NCBI RefSeq assembly: GCF_022376445.1
Contig: NW_025955089.1
Location: forward strand, 57,082 to 121,081
Direction: 5' to 3'
Length of the DNA stretch: 64,000 bases
Source of the DNA: Fomitopsis serialis
Taxonomy: Eukaryota; Basidiomycota; Agaricomycetes; Polyporales; Fomitopsidaceae
Below the pieces are notes generated by a model. It made no database searches. It saw only the letters and a list, made by a program, of their open reading frames with translations, and was not told the origin of the DNA. This document shows positions 14,431 through 26,589 of this stretch, in pieces. Position 1 is the stretch's first letter. Each line of letters begins with the position of its first letter. The position numbers and the translations under genes were made by a program.

Positions 14431-15223
14431 TCATCCTGCCGCCCTCGTCGTCCTGCCGCCCTCGTCGTCCTGCCGCCCTCGTCGTCCTGCCGCCCTCGTC
14501 GTCCTGCCGCCCTCGTCGTCCTGCCGCCCGCCTCCCGTGTCGCCCCTCCACGTACCGATTCCGTAGCCGCCGCGAGTGCAGGACGAGCCGGCTGAGCACG
14601 AGCGCCCAAAACGCGGCTAGGCTCCCTCTGCGCCGCCTCGACCGCCTCTCCCACACCTCCGGGTCAACACCCGCCATGCTGTCGGCGGCCAGCGTACTGC
14701 ACACGGTAGTCATCCGCGGTTCGACCTTTTTGCACGCCGACAAGACCTTCAATCCACTGCCCAACCCGCTGCGCAGCTCCGTACATCCCACATCGCGTCC
14801 TCCTTGCCTCGCGTCACTCCTCAGCTCGCATCGCCACTGTTCCCCTTCGCGCTCGCGCTCGTGCCCCTCGATCAGCCGCATGAGCAGGTCGACGTTGGCA
14901 GTCGCCCACCTGCCGTAGTCGCCGTGCCGCATCTCCGTGCGCACGTGGTGGAGCCCCCCGTGGTACAGCAGGACGACCGCCAAGTGGTGCTCCTCCGAGA
15001 GCGTTGCCAGCTGCGCGAGGTACTGCGTGCTCGCGGACGTGATCGCCAGCACGACCGTCCGGGCGTCGATGAGGCCGGCTTCGTCCACCTCGCCAGCTCC
15101 GTCGGCCCTCTCAACGGCAGCAGCGCGACGCCGAGCCCTGCCAGCTCTCCGGACACAAGCCGGTCGTCGCTCTCCCACCACGTCTTGGCTCGTCCGATTC
15201 GGCAGCGATATCCACAGCCCCAT
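14369..15223 (-). CDS. Uncertain minus-strand ORF over the minisatellite
   Basis: The frame contains a protein-like part (residues about 55-125, with TVVLAITSAST and DLLMRLIEGHE) and then a low-complexity tail from the 17-bp repeat. Upstream similarity-like text continues in a different minus-strand frame (LVSGELAGLGVALLPLRG, near 15150), suggesting a frameshift or a missed intron near 15080. No domain is recognised. It conflicts with the plus-strand reading of 15229-15948 only at its 5' side. It could be a decayed gene. Confidence 0.2.
   Translation of the reverse strand: MGLWISLPNRTSQDVVGERRPACVRRAGRARRRAAAVERADGAGEVDEAGLIDARTVVLAITSASTQYLAQLATLSEEHHLAVVLLYHGGLHHVRTEMRHGDYGRWATANVDLLMRLIEGHEREREGEQWRCELRSDARQGGRDVGCTELRSGLGSGLKVLSACKKVEPRMTTVCSTLAADSMAGVDPEVWERRSRRRRGSLAAFWALVLSRLVLHSRRLRNRYVEGRHGRRAAGRRGRQDDEGGRTTRAAGRRGRQDDEGGRMSGIDDPASAHLTRRGYGDMN
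14435..14528. repeat. 17-bp minisatellite, about 5.5 copies
   Basis: The unit CCTGCCGCCCTCGTCGT is repeated perfectly five times (14435-14519), followed by a 9-nt partial copy. Because 17 is not a multiple of three, any frame through it cycles through all three codon phases and gives a 17-residue peptide period. On the minus strand it falls within a long open frame (14369-15223) whose Arg/Gly/Asp-rich tail is only this repeat. Confidence 0.9.
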
Positions 15224-17418: not shown

Positions 17419-17427
17419 GGGGAGGGG
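17419..17427. repeat. Left target-site duplication, GGGGAGGGG
   Basis: Nine bases, GGGGAGGGG, abut the outer end of the left terminal inverted repeat (TAGGCTCGT...). The identical nine bases lie directly outside the right repeat at 24495-24503. Low complexity lowers the weight of the match, but both copies abut the repeat ends exactly. Confidence 0.8.
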
Positions 17428-17552
17428 TAGGCTCGTGACCAGCCGTTCAATTCGAACTCCGATGCGTCGTTCGCAGAACGGCTGGTACAACTGGAAGGGC
17501 GCTTAAGGGGGGTCCCGATTTGGGGCCCCGTGTGAAACGGGACTTAGTGAAA
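17428..17552 (+). repeat. Left terminal inverted repeat with internal hairpin
   Basis: About 125 bp. The outer part TAGGCTCGTGACCAG matches the right end. Next comes a palindrome, CCAGCCGTTC (17439-17448) against GAACGGCTGG (17476-17485), with a nested CGAAC/GTTCG. The inner part AACTGGAAGG... and GCCCCGTGTGAAACGGGACTTAG matches the right repeat with small gaps; GTTTCACACGG in the right copy is its complement. Confidence 0.8.
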
Positions 17553-17697
17553 TCGTGCGCGTCGTGTTCATGCAGCGCGGGAGCCGGGCGAACTGCCTCG
17601 ACCTACTTAGGGTACTCTCGTTTCCAGTTAGACTAGGCTTCGCTTGTATTCATTACTGCATGGGCTACTACGAAGTAATACAAAAACTTCGCTTGCA

Positions 17698-20376
17698 TCA
17701 TGTTCGCCGCCCTAAGGCCTGCGATCCGAAGGATGACCAGAAAGCCTCGTAGGTGGTAATGCGCGCGTGTCCATCCTCTGACTCGCCTACCGATCCCGCC
17801 GCTGTATCATACTGCGACACTGTCGATGATGGCTGTCTATCCCCGCCATCTCCGCTACTGCGCGCACGTTTTGCTGGCCGTGGGTTGACATCCTGGACCT
17901 GGGTTGGATCGAAGGGATCCACTGGGCCACTGGGGCCGACGCACGGGTGATCATCCGAGTCTCTGGACTCCGCGGCGCGTTTCGTTCGTGTTGGGGTCGA
18001 AGAGGGAGCATGGGCTGCTGTGCGATCACCTTGCGGCACCATTCCCGAGGTGAGGTGAGTTGTACTCGGGCCTGGGGGAGGTGATGCATGAACAGCGAGC
18101 TCGGAAGTCGCACTCGCGGCGTGCGGCGTGCGGCGACTTGAAGGGGTACCGACAGGAAGGGCGGCTGGTGGATTGGAGGACTTCGAGACGGCGCCGGTGG
18201 TTGAAGCGGAAGGAGTCTTCTTCGGCTTCGTCGGTTTCTTTGGCTTGGGCGTGAAGGCAATGTTCAGCGATGTGATGTGAGTAATCAATTCTGCACCGTG
18301 TTTGTCCCACCAGATCCAGGACGGCTTCAGGATTGCTGTAACACTGTTGCGAGACACATTGCCCATACTAGCCAGGTGCTCGATCACGGTGTCCTCGAGG
18401 ACTGCGCTCGAATCATACATCGTGTTTGCATGATCGCGCTCATAGACATCGTCTCGCCATTGATACAGGCTCAGTTGTGCCTCAGTGTCCGGGAGACCAC
18501 GAGTGACTCGCTTCGGCTGGGACAGTTGCGAGAGTGCACTAGGTCGAGTTTGACGAAGCAGGTCAGGATTGCAGATATCACAGCAGGCTCCCGAGGGTTC
18601 TGCGGGACACACTGATCAGCTTGCAGGCTACTAAGTACGAGAGAGCACAAATGACGAACTGTTGTAGGGGCTCTCAAAGGCGTCGGCCCACACACGACGT
18701 CGACAGCGTGTACTCTGAACGAAGGCAAGAAGCCCTTCATCAAGGGCTTCCGCATCCAGTCCTGGCTGCTTCCCGCTCGGGGCACTGTCCTGGTGCGATG
18801 TGCCCCCACGGTTCACTCCATGCTCCTCGGCATACTGCTTGTTTGCTTTGACCTGCGGTGTGGTCTTTCTCTTCCTTCCTCGGGTGACAGGCTTCGTCTT
18901 GGTTTTATCTAGGTTCCTTGTCGGGCCATCTGGCTGCGCCGCCTTGGACGGAGTCGCGCTCTGAGTCGAGTCCTCGCCGGACTGTGCTGTCAAGTCAATC
19001 GAGTATGCAGACCGTTCAACAATCAACACTGCGAGGCCTGTACGCCCCCGTCCTCTTGCGACTCGTCCGGCACGCTGAATGAAGTTCGAGAACGTCGAAG
19101 GCAGCTTCCACTGGACCACGACATCTATATCGGGTATATCGCAACCCTGTGAAAGGTCAGTTCTTGATGAACGAGCGACTCCCAGCGAGAAAATACTCAC
19201 CATTCCCGCCGCCTCAGTGCAAACCATTATGCGAATGCTACCTTTGCGGAAGGCGTCCATCGCGGCTGTTCGGTATTCCGAAGACAACACTGCATTGAAA
19301 GGACGAATTAAATTCGCTGGCTGAGGTATATCTGTACGACTGGCGGTGCGTGTTTCGAGTAGGGTGGCGAGGTGGTCAATGATCTCGGTGCCTGTGTTGA
19401 TGTTGTCCACATAGATCCACGTCTTCGGGATATCCTCGACACGGCTGATTGAGCTCGGCACGATGAAGTCGAGGTCTTTGTAGGTGTTTTGTGGATGCTC
19501 GGCAGCACGGACGACCAGGGCAACATTCGGGCGGTCGTTACCAACATTTACAAAGCGGCTCCCGCCTTTCGGGAAATGCAGCGCGCGGTGGATGTCACGC
19601 CGGACACGCGCTGTCAACGTCGCTGTCAATGCGATGACAGGTGTGCCACGGGGAAGGAAGGCTCGTACAACACCGAGGGATGCGTATTTCTTTCGGAAAT
19701 CTGCCCCCCAGTGTGACACGCAATGAGCTTCATCAACCACCATTGAGAGTATGTGTCTAGCGAAGGATGAATTACGGAGGATCTTCTGGATGAAGGTTTG
19801 TGATTGCAGCATCTCTGGTGATGCGAGGATGACTTGATACTTTAGGGCGAGTATATTCTACGGGGAAATGGAGATCTAGGTAGCCGTGTAATTGGCTGGT
19901 TACGAACCTTCACGACAATAGGTGAGCACGAGCCATTCTGACTGTTGACAGCTACGGCATCGAGGCCATACTTTTCTTTGAATGTTTTCACCTGCAGGCA
20001 GCAATCTGTCAGCTATCGACAGAAGGCAATGCGACGGACACACCATCTCGTCTTCAAGAGACAGTAGTGGCGAGACCATAATGGTGACCTTCGGTTGCTC
20101 GTGCGGCCACAAGTGTGCGCCCGCAACTATAGCGGTCTTCCCTGCTCCGGTGGGGGCCTGGAGTGCCATGTCGACTCCCTCAAGCTGCGCCTGAATACCT
20201 GCAAGCTGGAACGACTGTGGAGTCCATCCGTATTTCTCCTCCATAAGCCGACTCAAATTGCTGACATCTTCGTCTGTCAGTTTTCGTGGTCCTCGGTTGG
20301 TCGGTGTGTCCTTCCGGATGGCCCATTTGCGCCGAATCGGGGAGCCTGAGGGTGAAGAAGGTCTGGAAGGAGGCAT
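17698..20376 (-). CDS. RecQ-family DNA helicase within the mobile element
   Basis: ATP-dependent 3'-5' DNA helicase of the RecQ superfamily-2 type. Exons are 20044-20376, 19908-19991, 19201-19857, 18660-19146 and 17698-18611, summing to 2475 nt (824 aa). Motif I is APTGAGKT (about residues 74-81), the DEAH box is VVDEAHCVSHWG (about 181), motif III is ALTATLT, and motif VI is FIQRAGRVARGRGRTG, with QRAGR-VARG in place of the classical IGRAGRDG. A Cys cluster (CCDIC about residue 530, after an RCRRR stretch) resembles a RecQ zinc-binding subdomain placed late. A long Pro/Ser-rich, disordered C-terminus follows. The last intron, needed to join AFESPYN to MCPAEP, starts GTTCGT. Such helicases are multicopy in agaricomycetes and resemble telomere-linked RecQ genes. 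Role in unwinding transposon ends or replication intermediates is inferred. Confidence 0.88.
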
Positions 20377-20556
20377 GTTGATGGAAGACAATTTCAGGAA
20401 AGGCGAGCAGGAGAGAGGGTGAATGCACGATGGCAGTGGCGGTGGCAACGCGATCGAGCGAGGGAGGCTTGCACTATGAGCATGCCACACAAATATATTT
20501 GTTCGTCTCAGCAACACTACATCTCTCGTCACCATCTGTATGGACTACCGACTACC
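20377..20556. promoter_or_regulatory. Bidirectional promoter between helicase and DUF6589 gene
   Basis: Only 180 bp separate the chosen start codons of the two divergent genes. The region holds a TATA-like stretch AAATATATTT near 20490. In-frame upstream ATGs at 20419 and 20476 would extend the DUF6589 protein; I did not use them because they would consume the promoter. Confidence 0.5.
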
Positions 20557-23500
20557 ATGCAGCCGTCGAATCTGGATGAGTCCCCATTGCGAGGGCTACT
20601 GGCCATGTCACCCTTGCCTTCTTCGTCTCCCCTGTCGAGTCTATCAGCACTTTCTCCCATAAATCAGCTCTCGAAGCGAGATGCCCAGGATCCAAGCAGT
20701 GCTGAGTCCTCACCTATGGAGCTCAATGCAGATCTTCCGAGCGCAGCTGGTGCAGATGCTGCAAACCTGCCCTCACTGTGCTCCCCTATTCCTGCGGGCC
20801 ATGGGGCCGACCTGGAGCCCACGACTCCTATTGCATTGGGTTCTGCTGCTCAGTTGCATCTCAGTAGCAGTGGACCTTTTAGGTCGACACCTGTTGTCGG
20901 AACTCCACAAACAAAACTCAAAATCATTCGAAAGAAGGCGCAAAAGAAACGGGTCGGTACCCTTGCACGCCTGCGAGAGGATCGCGAGCTCAGAGATGTT
21001 GCCGCCGCAAACGCTGCTTATCAAGCCGCAATTGCTGCAGAGGTCGAAGAACGTACTCTCGGAAACATCAACAGTGACAGTTTCGCGGAGGCAGTGGCCG
21101 ATCCTCAGCCTGTATGTCCTGTCAGCCCTATTCCACGTCCTCGCAATGAGGTACTCGATGAGACTCTCGCCCTCCTCAAGAGGCATGATTTAACTTGGGG
21201 AGACCTCGTGCTCTATGTGTCGGACCCCGCATCCAAACGCGGAACCGAGCGGTACAAGGGGATGTTCGATGTCCCTGGACGAGTAGAAGATGTACTTGCC
21301 TTCTGGACATCTTCACGTAACAGTCGCACCGGTCGCGAGGCAATCCATTCCTGGATCATGGGCTACATCAAGAAGCTCATCGGACGTGAGGCCTCTCGCA
21401 CAACCAAGGGCGGAATGCTGCAGTCGCGCAAGATGCAACTCGACGAAGCTTTCGTCTTGAACTTCAGCCTGACGAAGATACACGAGAGCCTGAGACGGCT
21501 GTGTCCAATTATGACCGAGCTGTTGTGGGAGTTCGCATCGACGACGAGACAGAGGAATATGCCAAGTGAGGCTTCGATAGCTCGTAAGGATATGGTATGT
21601 TTTCCTGACCTTATAGTGGTATGATATGCCCGTCCTGACGCTACACTTAGCGTATTGGAGCTACCTTGATGGGTCTCCTGGGCGAGCACAGTCAGAACAA
21701 TAGCTATGGCAAGCATGTTGTCGGACTGTACCTCTATGCCACCGGTGCGCAGCGACAGACAATCAGTGTCCTCTCACGACTCGGTGTCTGCAGTAGTTAT
21801 ACCACTGTTGCCGGGAAGTCAGGGTCGAAGTCTGCCAATGTATCACGTCAAGTTGTCGAGCAAGGAAGCCAGCATTCGGACGCCGTGCAGTCACCAACAC
21901 AGGCCATCGACCCTGAAGACGCTGGAATCGAGGACAGCTCTGACGATGATAGCACAGATGAGGATCACAGCTCGGCCAGTGGAGATGAAGACGATGAAGC
22001 CAGTGGAGACGAGGGAGAGATGAATACTCTGGATGCTATTGACGAAGAGGTGCCCGACGAGCCTGGACCAGGAGACATCGTTGCGCTCGAATCAGACTTG
22101 GAGCGATGCGCAGGCCTACTTCGGCGTCTGTCCCAATCCTGTCGAGGCAGCGCCCGAGCTCAGGCTCGCATCCACGAGCTAGCGCATGTGTACGACAACA
22201 TTAATTGGATTCTTCGTCATGCAGAGCAGATCCTAGGACGCAAGGACTCCATCGAAAACGGGACGTGCGCCACCGTTTTCCCACTATTCAATGCTGCTCG
22301 CGAGGACATGTCGACCTCTGATCTCTTGGACTCCTTCAACACTGCGCCTCCCCTTACACGCGACCACGTACTCCTGGATCCCTCCGAATCGACTCTACTC
22401 ACCACAATGCTCGTGCACAACATTCTCCGCATCATCACATCGCACGGCGGGGCTAGCTTTGCTCGGTTTGCGCCCAATGTCGAGCGTTCATTACCGCGTT
22501 CCACAGAATGCATTCCACTTCACAAGACGGAGGTGTACCCTCTCCGGGCGATGAACATCGAGGAGGCCAGCATTAAGGGCAATGCGGAGGTCCCGGAGAC
22601 CATGTTTGGTGAGCTTGGCCATGACCTCGACTCCACGACCTTCACGGACACCGTCAAGATCGTCTTCGGTGATCAGCTTTCTGTTGCACGAATTCGCGCC
22701 GTAATCAACAACCGTGCGGGGCACGATTCCCTTTCGAAATCACTCCTTTATGCCGCTTTTGCCCCAGGATTATTCCACTACCAGATGGCTGCGACATACG
22801 GTGTCCTCGAGACGCACTGGGGCAATCCGAGCCTCGGACATCACGATCCGGCGTGTCTTTCGTGGCACAACACAGTTCTGGATCGCAAGCCCTTTGTCTT
22901 GACCAACAAGCCACCGTATCGCGTTGCGCGTGATCTCATATTTCACTCGTTGTATGCCCGGCTGATACACTGCCTCGAGCTCGTCACAGCATGCGATGAT
23001 CTGGAAGACTACGCCCAGAATGTGTCTTTCGACGAACTACAAGAGCATGTGCACGAGATCGTTGCTAGGTTTGTGAACCCGAGCTCGGTCTCTAAGCTGC
23101 GCAGTGCTCGTTCTCGTGAGACGACCTTGCATGCTCGCGAGGACCCTCTCCCGGCGCCAGCGCAGGGTGACATGGTCTTCGAGAATGCATGTCTGTTCCT
23201 GCGAGATGCCCTCATACTGCGAGAGCTCACAGACTCTATCAAGGCCGGTGATTCAGGCCGGCTTGTCATAATCCTCAAGACAATGGCTTTGAGCTATCGA
23301 GGGAGCGGACGTACGAAGTATGCTCAGGAGACCCTCTTCGTTATCCACAACCTCGCACATGTCTGGCCGAAACCATTGCGGTGAGCGTCTATACTCTCGT
23401 CTCGCCCACTAATTCTCACACACACGTCACCGGAACAGAGCCATAATGATCAACAACTGGCTCGTGAATACGACGGGTAAGCCAGATCATTGGTATCCAG

Positions 23501-24199
23501 TCGACCTACTGCAAGAACACAACATATTTTGGACGAAGGTCCGTTCTCGATTCCTTCTGTTCTCACATCACTTTGACCCTTAACAATATACTACAGACCA
23601 TTTACAATGCGCAGGGGAGCGGCGCATCGTGGGATTGGTTGGAGATGATCTCGCCATGTATCAACATACTTCGCCGCCTCGTGACATCCGTGAATGATAC
23701 CCTGGGTTCAAGACAAGGTACCAAGCATGCGGCACCGGATATCAAACGCGACATGGAAGAGTTACGACGGTCACTTGCGGGTGCCAATGTATACAAGATC
23801 GAGAAGGGACGAGTCATTGATGGTACGAAAGCCGTGGTTCCGAACGTCATCAGTGTTGGGCTCTTGCACCTAGCAGGATCTCTCGGCGAGTACAACAAGA
23901 TGTTCACACGTCTCAAGAAACGCCGCGTGCGAACGTCACCACTCATCGGGGGCGCGATTGTCGGCGGGTCAACATCGCGCGCAGTCGCATCGCCGCGACC
24001 TTCGAGTGACAGCTCATTGACGGATGTCCCGTCAAATGGTGGTGGCTATATAGAGCCTAGTGTGGAAGCCTCGGAGCTGCAGGAAGGCTCGGATGATGAA
24101 GAGCAAGACGAGGGAGACGAGGAGATCGAGAGCTGGCTGGAACCTGAGCAGTTATTCTCATTGGATGACGAGGGCGACGTAGAGCTTTATGTCGACTAA
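20557..24199 (+). CDS. DUF6589 protein, candidate transposase of the element
   Basis: Exons are 20557-21594, 21651-23380, 23439-23538 and 23597-24199, totalling 3471 nt (1156 aa). The N-terminal 130 residues are Ser/Pro rich. Residues about 200-380 include a basic segment and the conserved pattern leading to LSRLGVCSSYTTV. An acidic linker follows (DDDSTDEDHSSASGDEDDE). The DUF6589 core has FGDQLSVARIRAV (Asp about 686), PGLFHYQM, THWGNPSLG and LLQEHNIFWTK. The C-terminus is strongly acidic. DUF6589 proteins are abundant in agaricomycetes and have no established activity. The invariant-looking GDQ and other acidic residues would suit an RNase-H-like nuclease, but this is speculation. Start chosen at MQPSNLDES to keep a promoter. 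No break found. Confidence 0.85.
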
Positions 24200-24335
24200 T
24201 ATAGGTTCGAGATGGTCTTTAAAACTTGACGGCCTGAGCTAGCATGTAATGCGACGACAGAGGAAAGCCCTGTATTGTGCATGCTACTTCGATGTCTCGG
24301 CCACCTCAGAGTCAGCCATTCGCGTTTCGCGCGAT

Positions 24336-24494
24336 TTCTCTAAGTCCCGTTTCACACGGGGGCCCAAATATGGCAGTGCCTTGGGTACCCCCGTAAACGC
24401 CTTCCAGTTGGCCCAGTCGTTAGAGTGCTGCTCGCCCATTCAAACTCCGTCAAAGCGAGCACGTGCACTCTAACGTGACTGGTTTACGAGTCTA
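24336..24494 (-). repeat. Right terminal inverted repeat with long hairpin
   Basis: About 159 bp, longer than the left copy because of a 13-nt insertion in the inner part and a longer hairpin. The hairpin arms CCAGTCGTTAGAGTGC (24413-24428) and GCACTCTAACGTGACTGG (24465-24482) pair, with a nested GCTCGC/GCGAGC. The loop ATTCAAACTCCG resembles ATTCGAACTCCG in the left loop, in direct orientation. Confidence 0.8.
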
Positions 24495-24503
24495 GGGGAG
24501 GGG
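24495..24503. repeat. Right target-site duplication, GGGGAGGGG
   Basis: Exact partner of 17419-17427, abutting the right inverted repeat end ...ACGAGTCTA. Confidence 0.8.
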
Positions 24504-25137
24504 CAACGCCCGCAAGGGCGAATCTGTTTGTTCGTGTTTGGAATTAGTGGCATTGGTCGCGAGAGTGGTAGAAGCACTGTATCACAAACATGAGCTCCCT
24601 CAGATGCTTTGGTGTCCGCGGATGCAACGGGATTGAGAGCCATGAGGCCATAGAAGGTTTTGTTAGGTTACATGGACGAGAATTCCGATTTAATGAGTGT
24701 GGCTCATGTGTGTTTCCTCAATCATGGAGTGAAAGACAAATATCCACACAATGAAACCACTAATGAAACACTCATACGTACTCTCGCAATATATTTGTCA
24801 CCAATGACCAGGCATGAATGCCTTTGCTTCAGGTTAGATACACGGTATACTGATAGGCACGAAGACGCGCGAGATGTCTCCGCCACAAACGCGTCGTACG
24901 GTCACGTGAGCAACAACAACGCGGTTACCCGTTCATCTCCATGCGCGTAACAATGTCCGTTCTCTCTCAAACATATCTCCTTTCGATAGGTGAGTTGAGG
25001 TATAAATGTACCATGGTCCCTGAATTTAATCGGGAGTTTCCTAGATTTATTCTGCGCTTAATTCGTGCCCTGAAGTTCAGCTACAGCATAATACACCAAT
25101 AATCATCCTCGGAGACGCATACATCATTAGCACGAGT
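24504..25137. other. Intergenic, AT-richer
   Basis: No gene supported. Short frames only. The sequence is less GC-rich than its surroundings. No repeat shared with other parts of the window was noticed. Confidence 0.4.
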
Positions 25138-26395
25138 ATGGTGGCCAAAGGAACATATAAATCATGTACTAGACCGAGGCGGAAGGGACGCTCTTCAGCA
25201 CAGAAGGCAGCTGCAGCCAAGGGAGCTCTGGCTAGTAGAGCTCAGTATCATGGAGACTCAGACTCAGACTCGGCACTGGCGAGAGAGAACATACCTGTAA
25301 TGGGTCCACAGTCATCTGGGATGGCTATTTTTTCGGAGTGGAGTGTCAGTGATATAGGTTACTTCCTTGCCAAGTGACAAACAAAACTCACTGTCATGTA
25401 GAAAGCTGAGATGGAGGACTTGCCGGCGCATGATGGGACTCAGCACTGGCATAAGCTTGCCGAATCGAGGAGACAACTGCACAACAGTCAGCGACGAGAA
25501 GCACGTATGAAGAAACGAATGAATGTACTCAAGGACAAGCTTCGAGTCAAGACAAATCTTCATGCATCTGTTGAGAAGCACAACACCGAGTTAGAGGGCA
25601 AGATCGTGCATCTTCAGCAGGAGGGGCACGAACTTCGCACGACCCTGGTCGGAACACGCAGCGCAATGGTCGATAAGCTACGTGGTTGTCAAAATACTAT
25701 TCGAAAGCTTCGCAAACGCAGCGAGCGTGCACCCCGTGTTCTCGCGAACGCGATTGAGAGGGCGAAGTCACGGCCAGCGATCTTTCGTTTGAAGCGGAAG
25801 GGTGTTTACACGCCAGCCGCGCGGTCGCTTGCGCGCATGTTGGTGCGAGGTGGATGTTCACAGAAGAAGGTCGGAGACGCCATGCAAGGCGTTGCGGGAG
25901 CGTTAGATGTTCGACGACACCTGTCACGAACATATTCGCCGCGAAGCACGTACCTTCGACAGCAGTGGCCACGAGGCCGAGCGCCGCAGACGTCAAGTCG
26001 AGCACGATCTGGCAACTGCTCAGCAGAGATCAGCAGAGGCCGCGGAGAAGAAGCGCAAGGAAAATGAACGGGAGGCCAAGCTGCGTGCAGTCAAGTTCGT
26101 AGTTGACGAGGAGGGCCTGGCGAAATTACGCAGACCTGACATTGATCAGCAGCTTCAAGTCTATCGGCTCGACGATAAGGAGACCCCCGCACCTTCGTCT
26201 TTGCACAAGAAAAAGGTCAAAAAGCCCGAGGCATTACTAGAGCTGAGGAAGGCGATTGCGCGTGCAGAGGCCCGCCGTACACTGGCTCTTTCGAATACTG
26301 CTACATCTGAGTCAGACAGCATTACAGCGAGTTTGACACAACGAGCAGGGGAATCCCACATAGACTATGATAATGACTCGGACCTAGATTGTTAG
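25138..26395 (+). pseudogene. Remnant of a multicopy agaricomycete coiled-coil (transposon-like) gene
   Basis: The upstream piece (25138-25374) encodes a basic Ser-rich start. From 25399 there is a long coiled coil (RREARMKKRMNVLKDKLR...) followed by the segment KRKGVYTPAARSLARMLV and RGGCSQKKVGDAMQGVAG. The frame then collapses near 25920, and a different frame (25907-26395) gives the family's C-terminal part: EARTFDSSGHEAERRRRQ, then FVVDEEGLAKLRRPDI and a final acidic tail. Intact relatives, as I recall them, carry several hundred residues between these parts, including an SGDGT-type motif. Here that centre is missing. I therefore call an internal deletion with frameshift. The family looks transposon-derived, but that is inference. 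Confidence 0.5.
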
Positions 26396-26589
26396 ACTAT
26401 AACATACATTTTAGTATAACGTACTCGTAATTTACTCTGGATAGATGTCTTGCCTGTAGAGCTTGAACGCGATCAGTGCGATGTATACGCCACACCAGCG
26501 CCACACGATCGAGGTCTGACCAAGTTTGCAGTGGCGCGTCGCTGACTAAGCGGCCACGGGCGTCGCAGGGCTTGCCCCTCCCCACTGCA

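What the first reader, a model, noticed from the sequence alone, without database searches (positions are those of the whole stretch)
17419..24503. A complete 7.07-kb TIR transposon with 9-bp TSD, built from a RecQ-like helicase and a DUF6589 gene
Seen directly: inverted repeats at both ends (TAGGCTCGT... and TAGACTCGT...), identical GGGGAGGGG on both outer sides, and two divergent multi-exon genes in between with all exon phases consistent. Known: RecQ helicases and DUF6589 proteins are each multicopy in agaricomycetes, and no DNA transposon class is defined by this pair to my knowledge. Inference: DUF6589 is the transposase and the helicase assists excision or replication. That would make this a new superfamily or an overlooked autonomous element.
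Basis: partly seen in the sequence, partly recalled or inferred. Interest (0 to 1): 0.92.

Follow-up and report, generated by a model that had tools for sequence, protein, structure and literature searches.

The report
AcademH-type transposon with RecQ helicase
This is a complete jumping gene of a wood-rotting fungus that carries its own cut-and-paste enzyme and its own DNA-unwinding helicase; relatives in the same genome moved recently, and it fits an already described kind of element (AcademH), but it shows that a protein family so far labelled 'unknown function' is the cutting enzyme.

Summary
Window 17428-24494 (7,067 bp) is a DNA transposon with short inverted termini (TAGGCTCGT/TAGACTCGT) and a 9-bp target duplication (GGGGAGGGG). 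It carries two open divergent genes: a RecQ-like helicase (820 aa) and a DUF6589 protein (1,156 aa). In the same assembly (Fomitopsis serialis, inferred), nine copies with such ends have both ends in hand: six have a 9-bp duplication, two 8 bp, one none. Four of five tested insertions have an empty counterpart in the assembly; the window copy has none found. Of 45 DUF6589 gene clusters, 32 have the helicase within 10 kb, never on the same strand. A confident model of a DUF6589 relative matches P-element, Hermes, ISCth4, Transib and RAG1 recombinases (first 28 rows), with a conserved D-D-E triad (window D528, D687, E906). DUF6589 is therefore very probably the DDE transposase. I file it as a probable AcademH member (0.85); homology to a reference Academ transposase could not be tested. 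Added here: fold and triad of DUF6589, two gene arrangements, hairpin-forming ends, polymorphic insertions.

The parts
17419..17427 (.). left copy of the 9-bp target site duplication GGGGAGGGG
   Evidence: origin from the target repeat shown
17428..17437 (+). left outer terminus TAGGCTCGTG
   Evidence: the same ten bases in the C124, C632 and C162 copies
17438..17486 (+). left subterminal hairpin (arms ACCAGCCGTTC / GAACGGCTGGT)
   Evidence: (z -3.4)
17477..17559 (+). inner inverted repeat, left arm
17698..20376 (-). RecQ-like SF2 helicase gene; exons 20376-20044, 19991-19908, 19857-19201, 19146-18660, 18599-17698; 820 aa (splice sites by eye)
   Evidence: deposited partial protein P0121, 99% identical, on a contig of the same length as C34
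20377..20556 (.). 180-bp stretch between the divergent genes (shared promoter region by inference)
20557..24199 (+). DDE transposase gene (Pfam DUF6589); exons 20557-21594, 21651-23380, 23439-23538, 23597-24199; 1156 aa (splice sites by eye)
22194..22196 (+). codon of catalytic-triad D528 (upstream of the Pfam DUF6589 match, residues 576-1000)
22671..22673 (+). codon of catalytic-triad D687
23328..23330 (+). codon of catalytic-triad E906
24328..24421 (-). inner inverted repeat, right arm
24413..24482 (-). right subterminal hairpin (arms include CGTTAGAGTGC / GCACTCTAACG)
   Evidence: (z -5.0)
24485..24494 (-). right outer terminus TAGACTCGTA
24495..24503 (.). right copy of the 9-bp target site duplication; also bases 2-10 of the repeat that was hit

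Best explanation
The 7,067-bp unit is an autonomous-looking, probably cut-and-paste DNA transposon of the AcademH type. Shown: its ends, its 9-bp target duplication, two open genes, sister copies at other sites and empty sites for some of these. Well supported: the DUF6589 protein is an RNase-H-fold DDE transposase with a helical insertion between the last strand and the glutamate helix, of the same general build as the P-element, hAT and RAG1 enzymes. Inferred: the transposase binds the termini with their subterminal hairpins, excises the element and joins it to target DNA with a 9-bp stagger. The RecQ-like helicase may open or resolve the hairpin-forming ends, or drive repair synthesis at the donor gap and the 9-nt target gaps.
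Confidence: 0.85

Rival explanations
1. A separate, unnamed DDE superfamily: DUF6589 transposases are unrelated to Academ transposases by descent, and the shared RecQ helicase and 9-bp TSD arose independently.
For: No paper in the held library mentions DUF6589. No Academ sequence was at hand to test. TSDs here are 8-9 bp, against the 9-10 reported for AcademH.
Against: RecQ helicase plus about 9-bp TSD plus a fungal DDE element is what the passages on Academ/AcademH describe. Such pairing twice over would be a coincidence.
Confidence: 0.12
2. KolobokH: a fungal Kolobok element encoding a RecQ helicase.
For: KolobokH encodes a RecQ helicase and is found only in fungi (PMC9587614 passages).
Against: Kolobok makes TTAA 4-bp TSDs; the TSDs read here are 8-9 bp and none is TTAA. 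[quoted passage not shown] here it is a gene on the other strand, divergent or convergent, in 32 of 32 pairs. At the place of the C/DxxH motif stands GxxH.
Confidence: 0.02
3. Two ordinary host genes lie side by side, and the flanking repeats are chance.
For: RecQ helicases and DUF6589 proteins are multicopy, and fungal Academ genes are frequently annotated as host genes.
Against: Empty sites, TSDs and shared ends at unrelated sites.
Confidence: 0.01

Closest known systems
AcademH lineage of the Academ superfamily (Kojima 2020, seen only as a citation; described in passages of PMC10045372, PMC10799480, PMC3627910 and PMC6416283)
   Same: DDE transposase, RecQ/SF2 helicase, 9-bp TSD, reported as low-copy in Basidiomycota; terminal inverted repeats (recalled for Academ)
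   Different: Some TSDs here are 8 bp; homology to the reference transposase was not tested; two gene arrangements and the hairpin-forming ends are described here from sequence, and whether earlier papers note them is unknown to me
AcademX lineage of Academ
   Same: Same superfamily, if AcademH is right
   Different: AcademX encodes a nuclease and makes 3-4 bp TSDs (PMC10045372 passage); here a helicase and 8-9 bp
P element, hAT (Hermes), Transib and RAG1 recombinases
   Same: Predicted fold: RNase-H core with a helical insertion, D-D-E order; hAT and P make 8-bp TSDs (recalled)
   Different: No helicase in those elements (recalled); GxxH in place of C/DxxH; only about 5-12% identity in the structural alignments of rows 1-28
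KolobokH
   Same: Fungal transposon with a RecQ helicase
   Different: TTAA 4-bp TSD; [quoted passage not shown]

Membership tests
AcademH (Academ superfamily) | encodes a DDD/E transposase | tested here: met
   Model and structural matches; triad conserved but for one gap in 106 rows; in a 48-row alignment of both lineages D 45 (3 gaps), D 47 (1 gap), E 46 (2 K). By prediction, not by assay
AcademH (Academ superfamily) | transposase homologous to known Academ transposases | not testable with these tools
   No Academ reference sequence at hand; Kojima 2020 not held
AcademH (Academ superfamily) | encodes a RecQ/SF2 helicase | tested here: met
   TIGR00614 recQ_fam is the best NCBIfam match, E 3e-44, but under its cut-off; PDB best matches for the C124 homologue P0122 are RecQ and RECQ5; a weak RecQ_Zn_bind match, under cut-off
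AcademH (Academ superfamily) | 9 or 10-bp target site duplication | tested here: met
   9 bp in the window; over nine copies with both ends, 9 bp in six (window included), 8 bp in two, none in one: met for most, not all
AcademH (Academ superfamily) | found in fungi incl. Basidiomycota as a low-copy element | tested here: met
   Distribution as stated in a passage of PMC10799480; here 13 left-end matches in 66 Mb, two of them the window element's own ends; host a basidiomycete
AcademX | 3-4 bp target site duplication | tested here: not met
   8-9 bp
KolobokH | TTAA target site duplication | tested here: not met
   None of the TSDs read is TTAA
KolobokH | C/DxxH motif between second D and E | tested here: not met
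   GxxH: G 47 and H 47 of 48 rows; motif definition from a passage of PMC9587614
hAT / P element | C/DxxH motif between second D and E | tested here: not met
   GxxH at that place, although the fold is like theirs
hAT / P element | 8-bp target site duplication | tested here: not met
   9 bp in the window and in six of nine copies; two of nine have 8 bp; the 8-bp rule is recalled

The most novel reading that the evidence does not exclude
The ends are recognised partly by shape rather than by sequence. Left and right ends carry different stem sequences, yet 12 of 13 ends tested fold far better than shuffles, with a stem that starts at CCAGY near base 12, and the element's own RecQ helicase works on those hairpins during excision or gap repair. 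DUF6589/RecQ elements would then be a helicase-assisted class of cut-and-paste transposons, possibly separate from Academ by descent.
Probability: 0.15. Interest if true: 0.65.

Novelty: new member of a known kind. Interest (0 to 1): 0.38.

Why it matters
It gives a large 'unknown function' Pfam family (DUF6589), found here in many Agaricomycetes, a probable role, a fold and a catalytic triad whose first residue lies outside the Pfam match. It shows that genes annotated as hypothetical proteins or as 'P-loop containing NTPase' are parts of transposons. The empty counterparts of sister insertions mean that some of these elements moved recently, so helicase-assisted cut-and-paste transposition could be tested directly.

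Tried and rejected
Rejected: new superfamily on gene content alone. Rejected: KolobokH. Rejected: chance TSD.

One row (C64, 81593-85744, 8-bp CGCGCTGC) was a chance pairing of weak termini; the true C64 ends were found later and that row was dropped. In one search the left ends of C64, C1, C48, C156 and C77 were not yet in hand, and the TSD candidates it printed are taken as chance. C1 has only a right end in hand; no left end was found in the DNA held. C90, C254 and C279 were not resolved at both ends. Of the convergent lineage only C52, C805 and C390 were found with both ends, by a scan of DNA already held.

The scan of viral contigs with the transposase alignment found no relative. The sequence profile of the transposase against PDB gave only chance matches (best E 0.59). 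Foldseek gave nothing under E 0.001. PMC12730594, PMC12210899, PMC9674265 and PMC4905642 gave no description of such an element in the passages seen. Searches for a description of this gene pair.

Samples used: 106 of the 120 listed relatives (of 283 found) in the alignment behind the model; 42 relatives of the convergent-type query plus 6 of the window-type list in the 48-row alignment; 57 of 59 shared contig lengths in the distance test, two with repeated lengths left out.

Full report
1. The element. The window holds a unit of 7,067 bp at 17428-24494 between two copies of GGGGAGGGG (17419-17427 and 24495-24503). The termini read TAGGCTCGTGACC and TAGACTCGTAAACC. Behind them lies a longer imperfect inverted repeat, 17477-17559 against 24328-24421.

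The TSD was checked independently. The DNA right of the element is a repeat with five other copies that match all of the queried 2 kb at 99-100%. In each of the four whose start was fetched, the repeat begins TGGGGAGGGGCAACGCCC after unrelated DNA. In the window, TGGGGAGGGG stands left of the element and GGGGAGGGGCAACGCCC right of it. The element thus landed one base inside the end of another repeat and duplicated nine bases of it.

2. The genes. On the plus strand, four exons (20557-24199) give 1,156 aa; Pfam DUF6589 matches residues 576-1000, E 4e-141. On the minus strand, five exons (20376-17698) give 820 aa. This protein has DEAD and Helicase_C domains, a weak RecQ zinc-binding match (E 0.015, under cut-off), and TIGR00614 recQ_fam as best NCBIfam match (3e-44, under cut-off). 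The homologue on C124 matches RecQ and RECQ5 best among solved structures. Splice sites were chosen by eye and are predictions.

3. The host. The own assembly has 66.2 Mb in 806 contigs. Contig lengths 472110, 17720 and 121081 agree with those of Fomitopsis serialis proteins, so that species is inferred. Empty and filled versions of sites coexist, which suggests that two nuclear haplotypes were assembled (inference).

4. Other copies. The left end has 13 matches, the window element's own two ends included, and the right end 10. For nine copies with such ends both ends are in hand. TSDs of nine bp: C34 (window) GGGGAGGGG, C124 CCTTGTCAG, C162 GATGTCTAA, C64 CCGGCCTGT, C48 GCCTACAGG, C156 AGTATCCGT. 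Of eight bp: C632 GAGACACT, C94 CATTTCTG. C77 has both ends and no matching TSD. Eight of the nine have both genes in divergent order; C94 keeps the helicase but gave no DUF6589 match. C162 is 11.4 kb between its ends. Three elements of the convergent type also have matching ends and TSDs: C52 (8 bp), C805 (9) and C390 (9); only those with both ends in DNA already held could be found.

5. Empty sites. Joined flanks with one TSD copy were searched for five insertions. C156 and C162 give full-length matches on other contigs (99% and 100%), C48 a full-length match at 98%, and C124 a 100% match over query bases 106-400, across the junction at 200. The three sites fetched (C48, C156, C124) hold one TSD copy, in C48 with one base different and read by eye from the printed sequence. 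C52 has none. The window's left flank has no near-identical second copy over its length, so its own empty site was not found.

6. The pair. The DUF6589 search gave 93 matches and the helicase search 62; clustering gives 45 and 44. Of 45 DUF6589 clusters, 32 have the helicase within 10 kb: 9 divergent, 23 convergent, 0 on the same strand. Thirteen have none; five of these lie within 3 kb of a contig start (C49, C150, C264, C444, C674). Contig pairs that look allelic inflate these numbers. Twelve of 44 helicase clusters are not the nearest helicase of any DUF6589 cluster; one of the twelve (C573:10-270) still lies 8.8 kb from one, and some weak ones may be host helicases.

In other fungi, 59 of 117 distinct contig lengths of the 120 listed transposase relatives recur among the 120 listed helicase relatives, taking equal length as the same contig. 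Some have consecutive gene numbers, such as EVJ58_g10195/g10196 on a 9,263-base contig. Distances of 57 such pairs correlate at r 0.85; 0 of 2,000 permutations reached that, largest 0.17. Transposase exon 2 gives dN/dS 0.09-0.20 in six of eight comparisons; in the helicase exon three of eight gave values (0.04-0.13). dS is above 1.9 wherever defined, and undefined in the others.

D335 lies in the first strand, D494 just after a later strand, and E716 in a helix after a long helical stretch. They are conserved in 105 (one gap), 106 and 106 of 106 rows, and in the 48-row alignment of both lineages in 45 (3 gaps), 47 (1 gap) and 46 (2 K). The window has D528, D687 and E906. The Pfam DUF6589 match starts after the first D.

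8. The ends. Folded as single DNA strands, 12 of 13 ends tested in the window's lineage have z -3.4 or lower; C632 left has -0.67. The one convergent end tested (C52 left) has -2.4. Left and right stems differ in sequence, but all 13 begin CCAGY at base 12-13 (my reading). By longest perfect stem, 7 of 13 ends beat all of 100 plain shuffles, five were reached by one or two shuffles, and C632 left by 32. I infer a role in transposase binding or in processing by the helicase.

9. What is known. PMC3627910: 'RecQ Helicase in Academ' (passage). PMC10045372: AcademH makes 9 or 10-bp and AcademX 3 or 4-bp TSDs, linked to helicase and nuclease (passage). PMC10799480: AcademH low-copy in Basidiomycota, Ascomycota and Mucoromycota (passage). 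PMC6416283: 81% (1,568 of 1,938) of the Academ copies in that study's fungal genomes carry recognizable domains, such as PF00270 and recQ_fam, and Academs are frequently annotated as host genes (passage). Kojima 2020 was seen only as a citation. No held paper contains 'DUF6589'.

10. Verdict. A real, autonomous-looking AcademH-type transposon; not a new superfamily on this evidence. The extra content is the fold and triad of DUF6589, the two gene arrangements, the hairpin-forming ends and the polymorphic insertions of sister copies. Whether earlier authors reported these is unknown to me, as the founding paper was not readable here.

Noticed in passing
window 24495-26500: The right flank is another repeat starting TGGGGAGGGGCAACGCCC, with five further near-identical copies of the queried 2 kb in the assembly and an ORF at 25402-26067 with only weak coiled-coil matches; its class was not determined.
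   Followed up: partly
G000:C113:269991-281149: Two convergent-type DUF6589/helicase pairs lie in mirror-image orientation, their DUF6589 genes about 2.8 kb apart with identical family scores, like an inverted duplication.
   Followed up: no
G000 C390/C523, C445/C446, C235/C556, C4/C573: Pairs of contigs carry DUF6589 elements with identical or nearly identical scores, probably allelic contigs or recent copies of the convergent lineage.
   Followed up: no
G000:C94:39258-45728: A 6.5-kb element with both ends and an 8-bp TSD that keeps the helicase; no DUF6589 match was found in it.
   Followed up: partly
window 14434-14545: A 17-bp tandem repeat (TCCTGCCGCCCTCGTCG, 5.6 perfect copies at 14434-14529) that goes on as a 51-bp repeat to 14545.
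   Followed up: no
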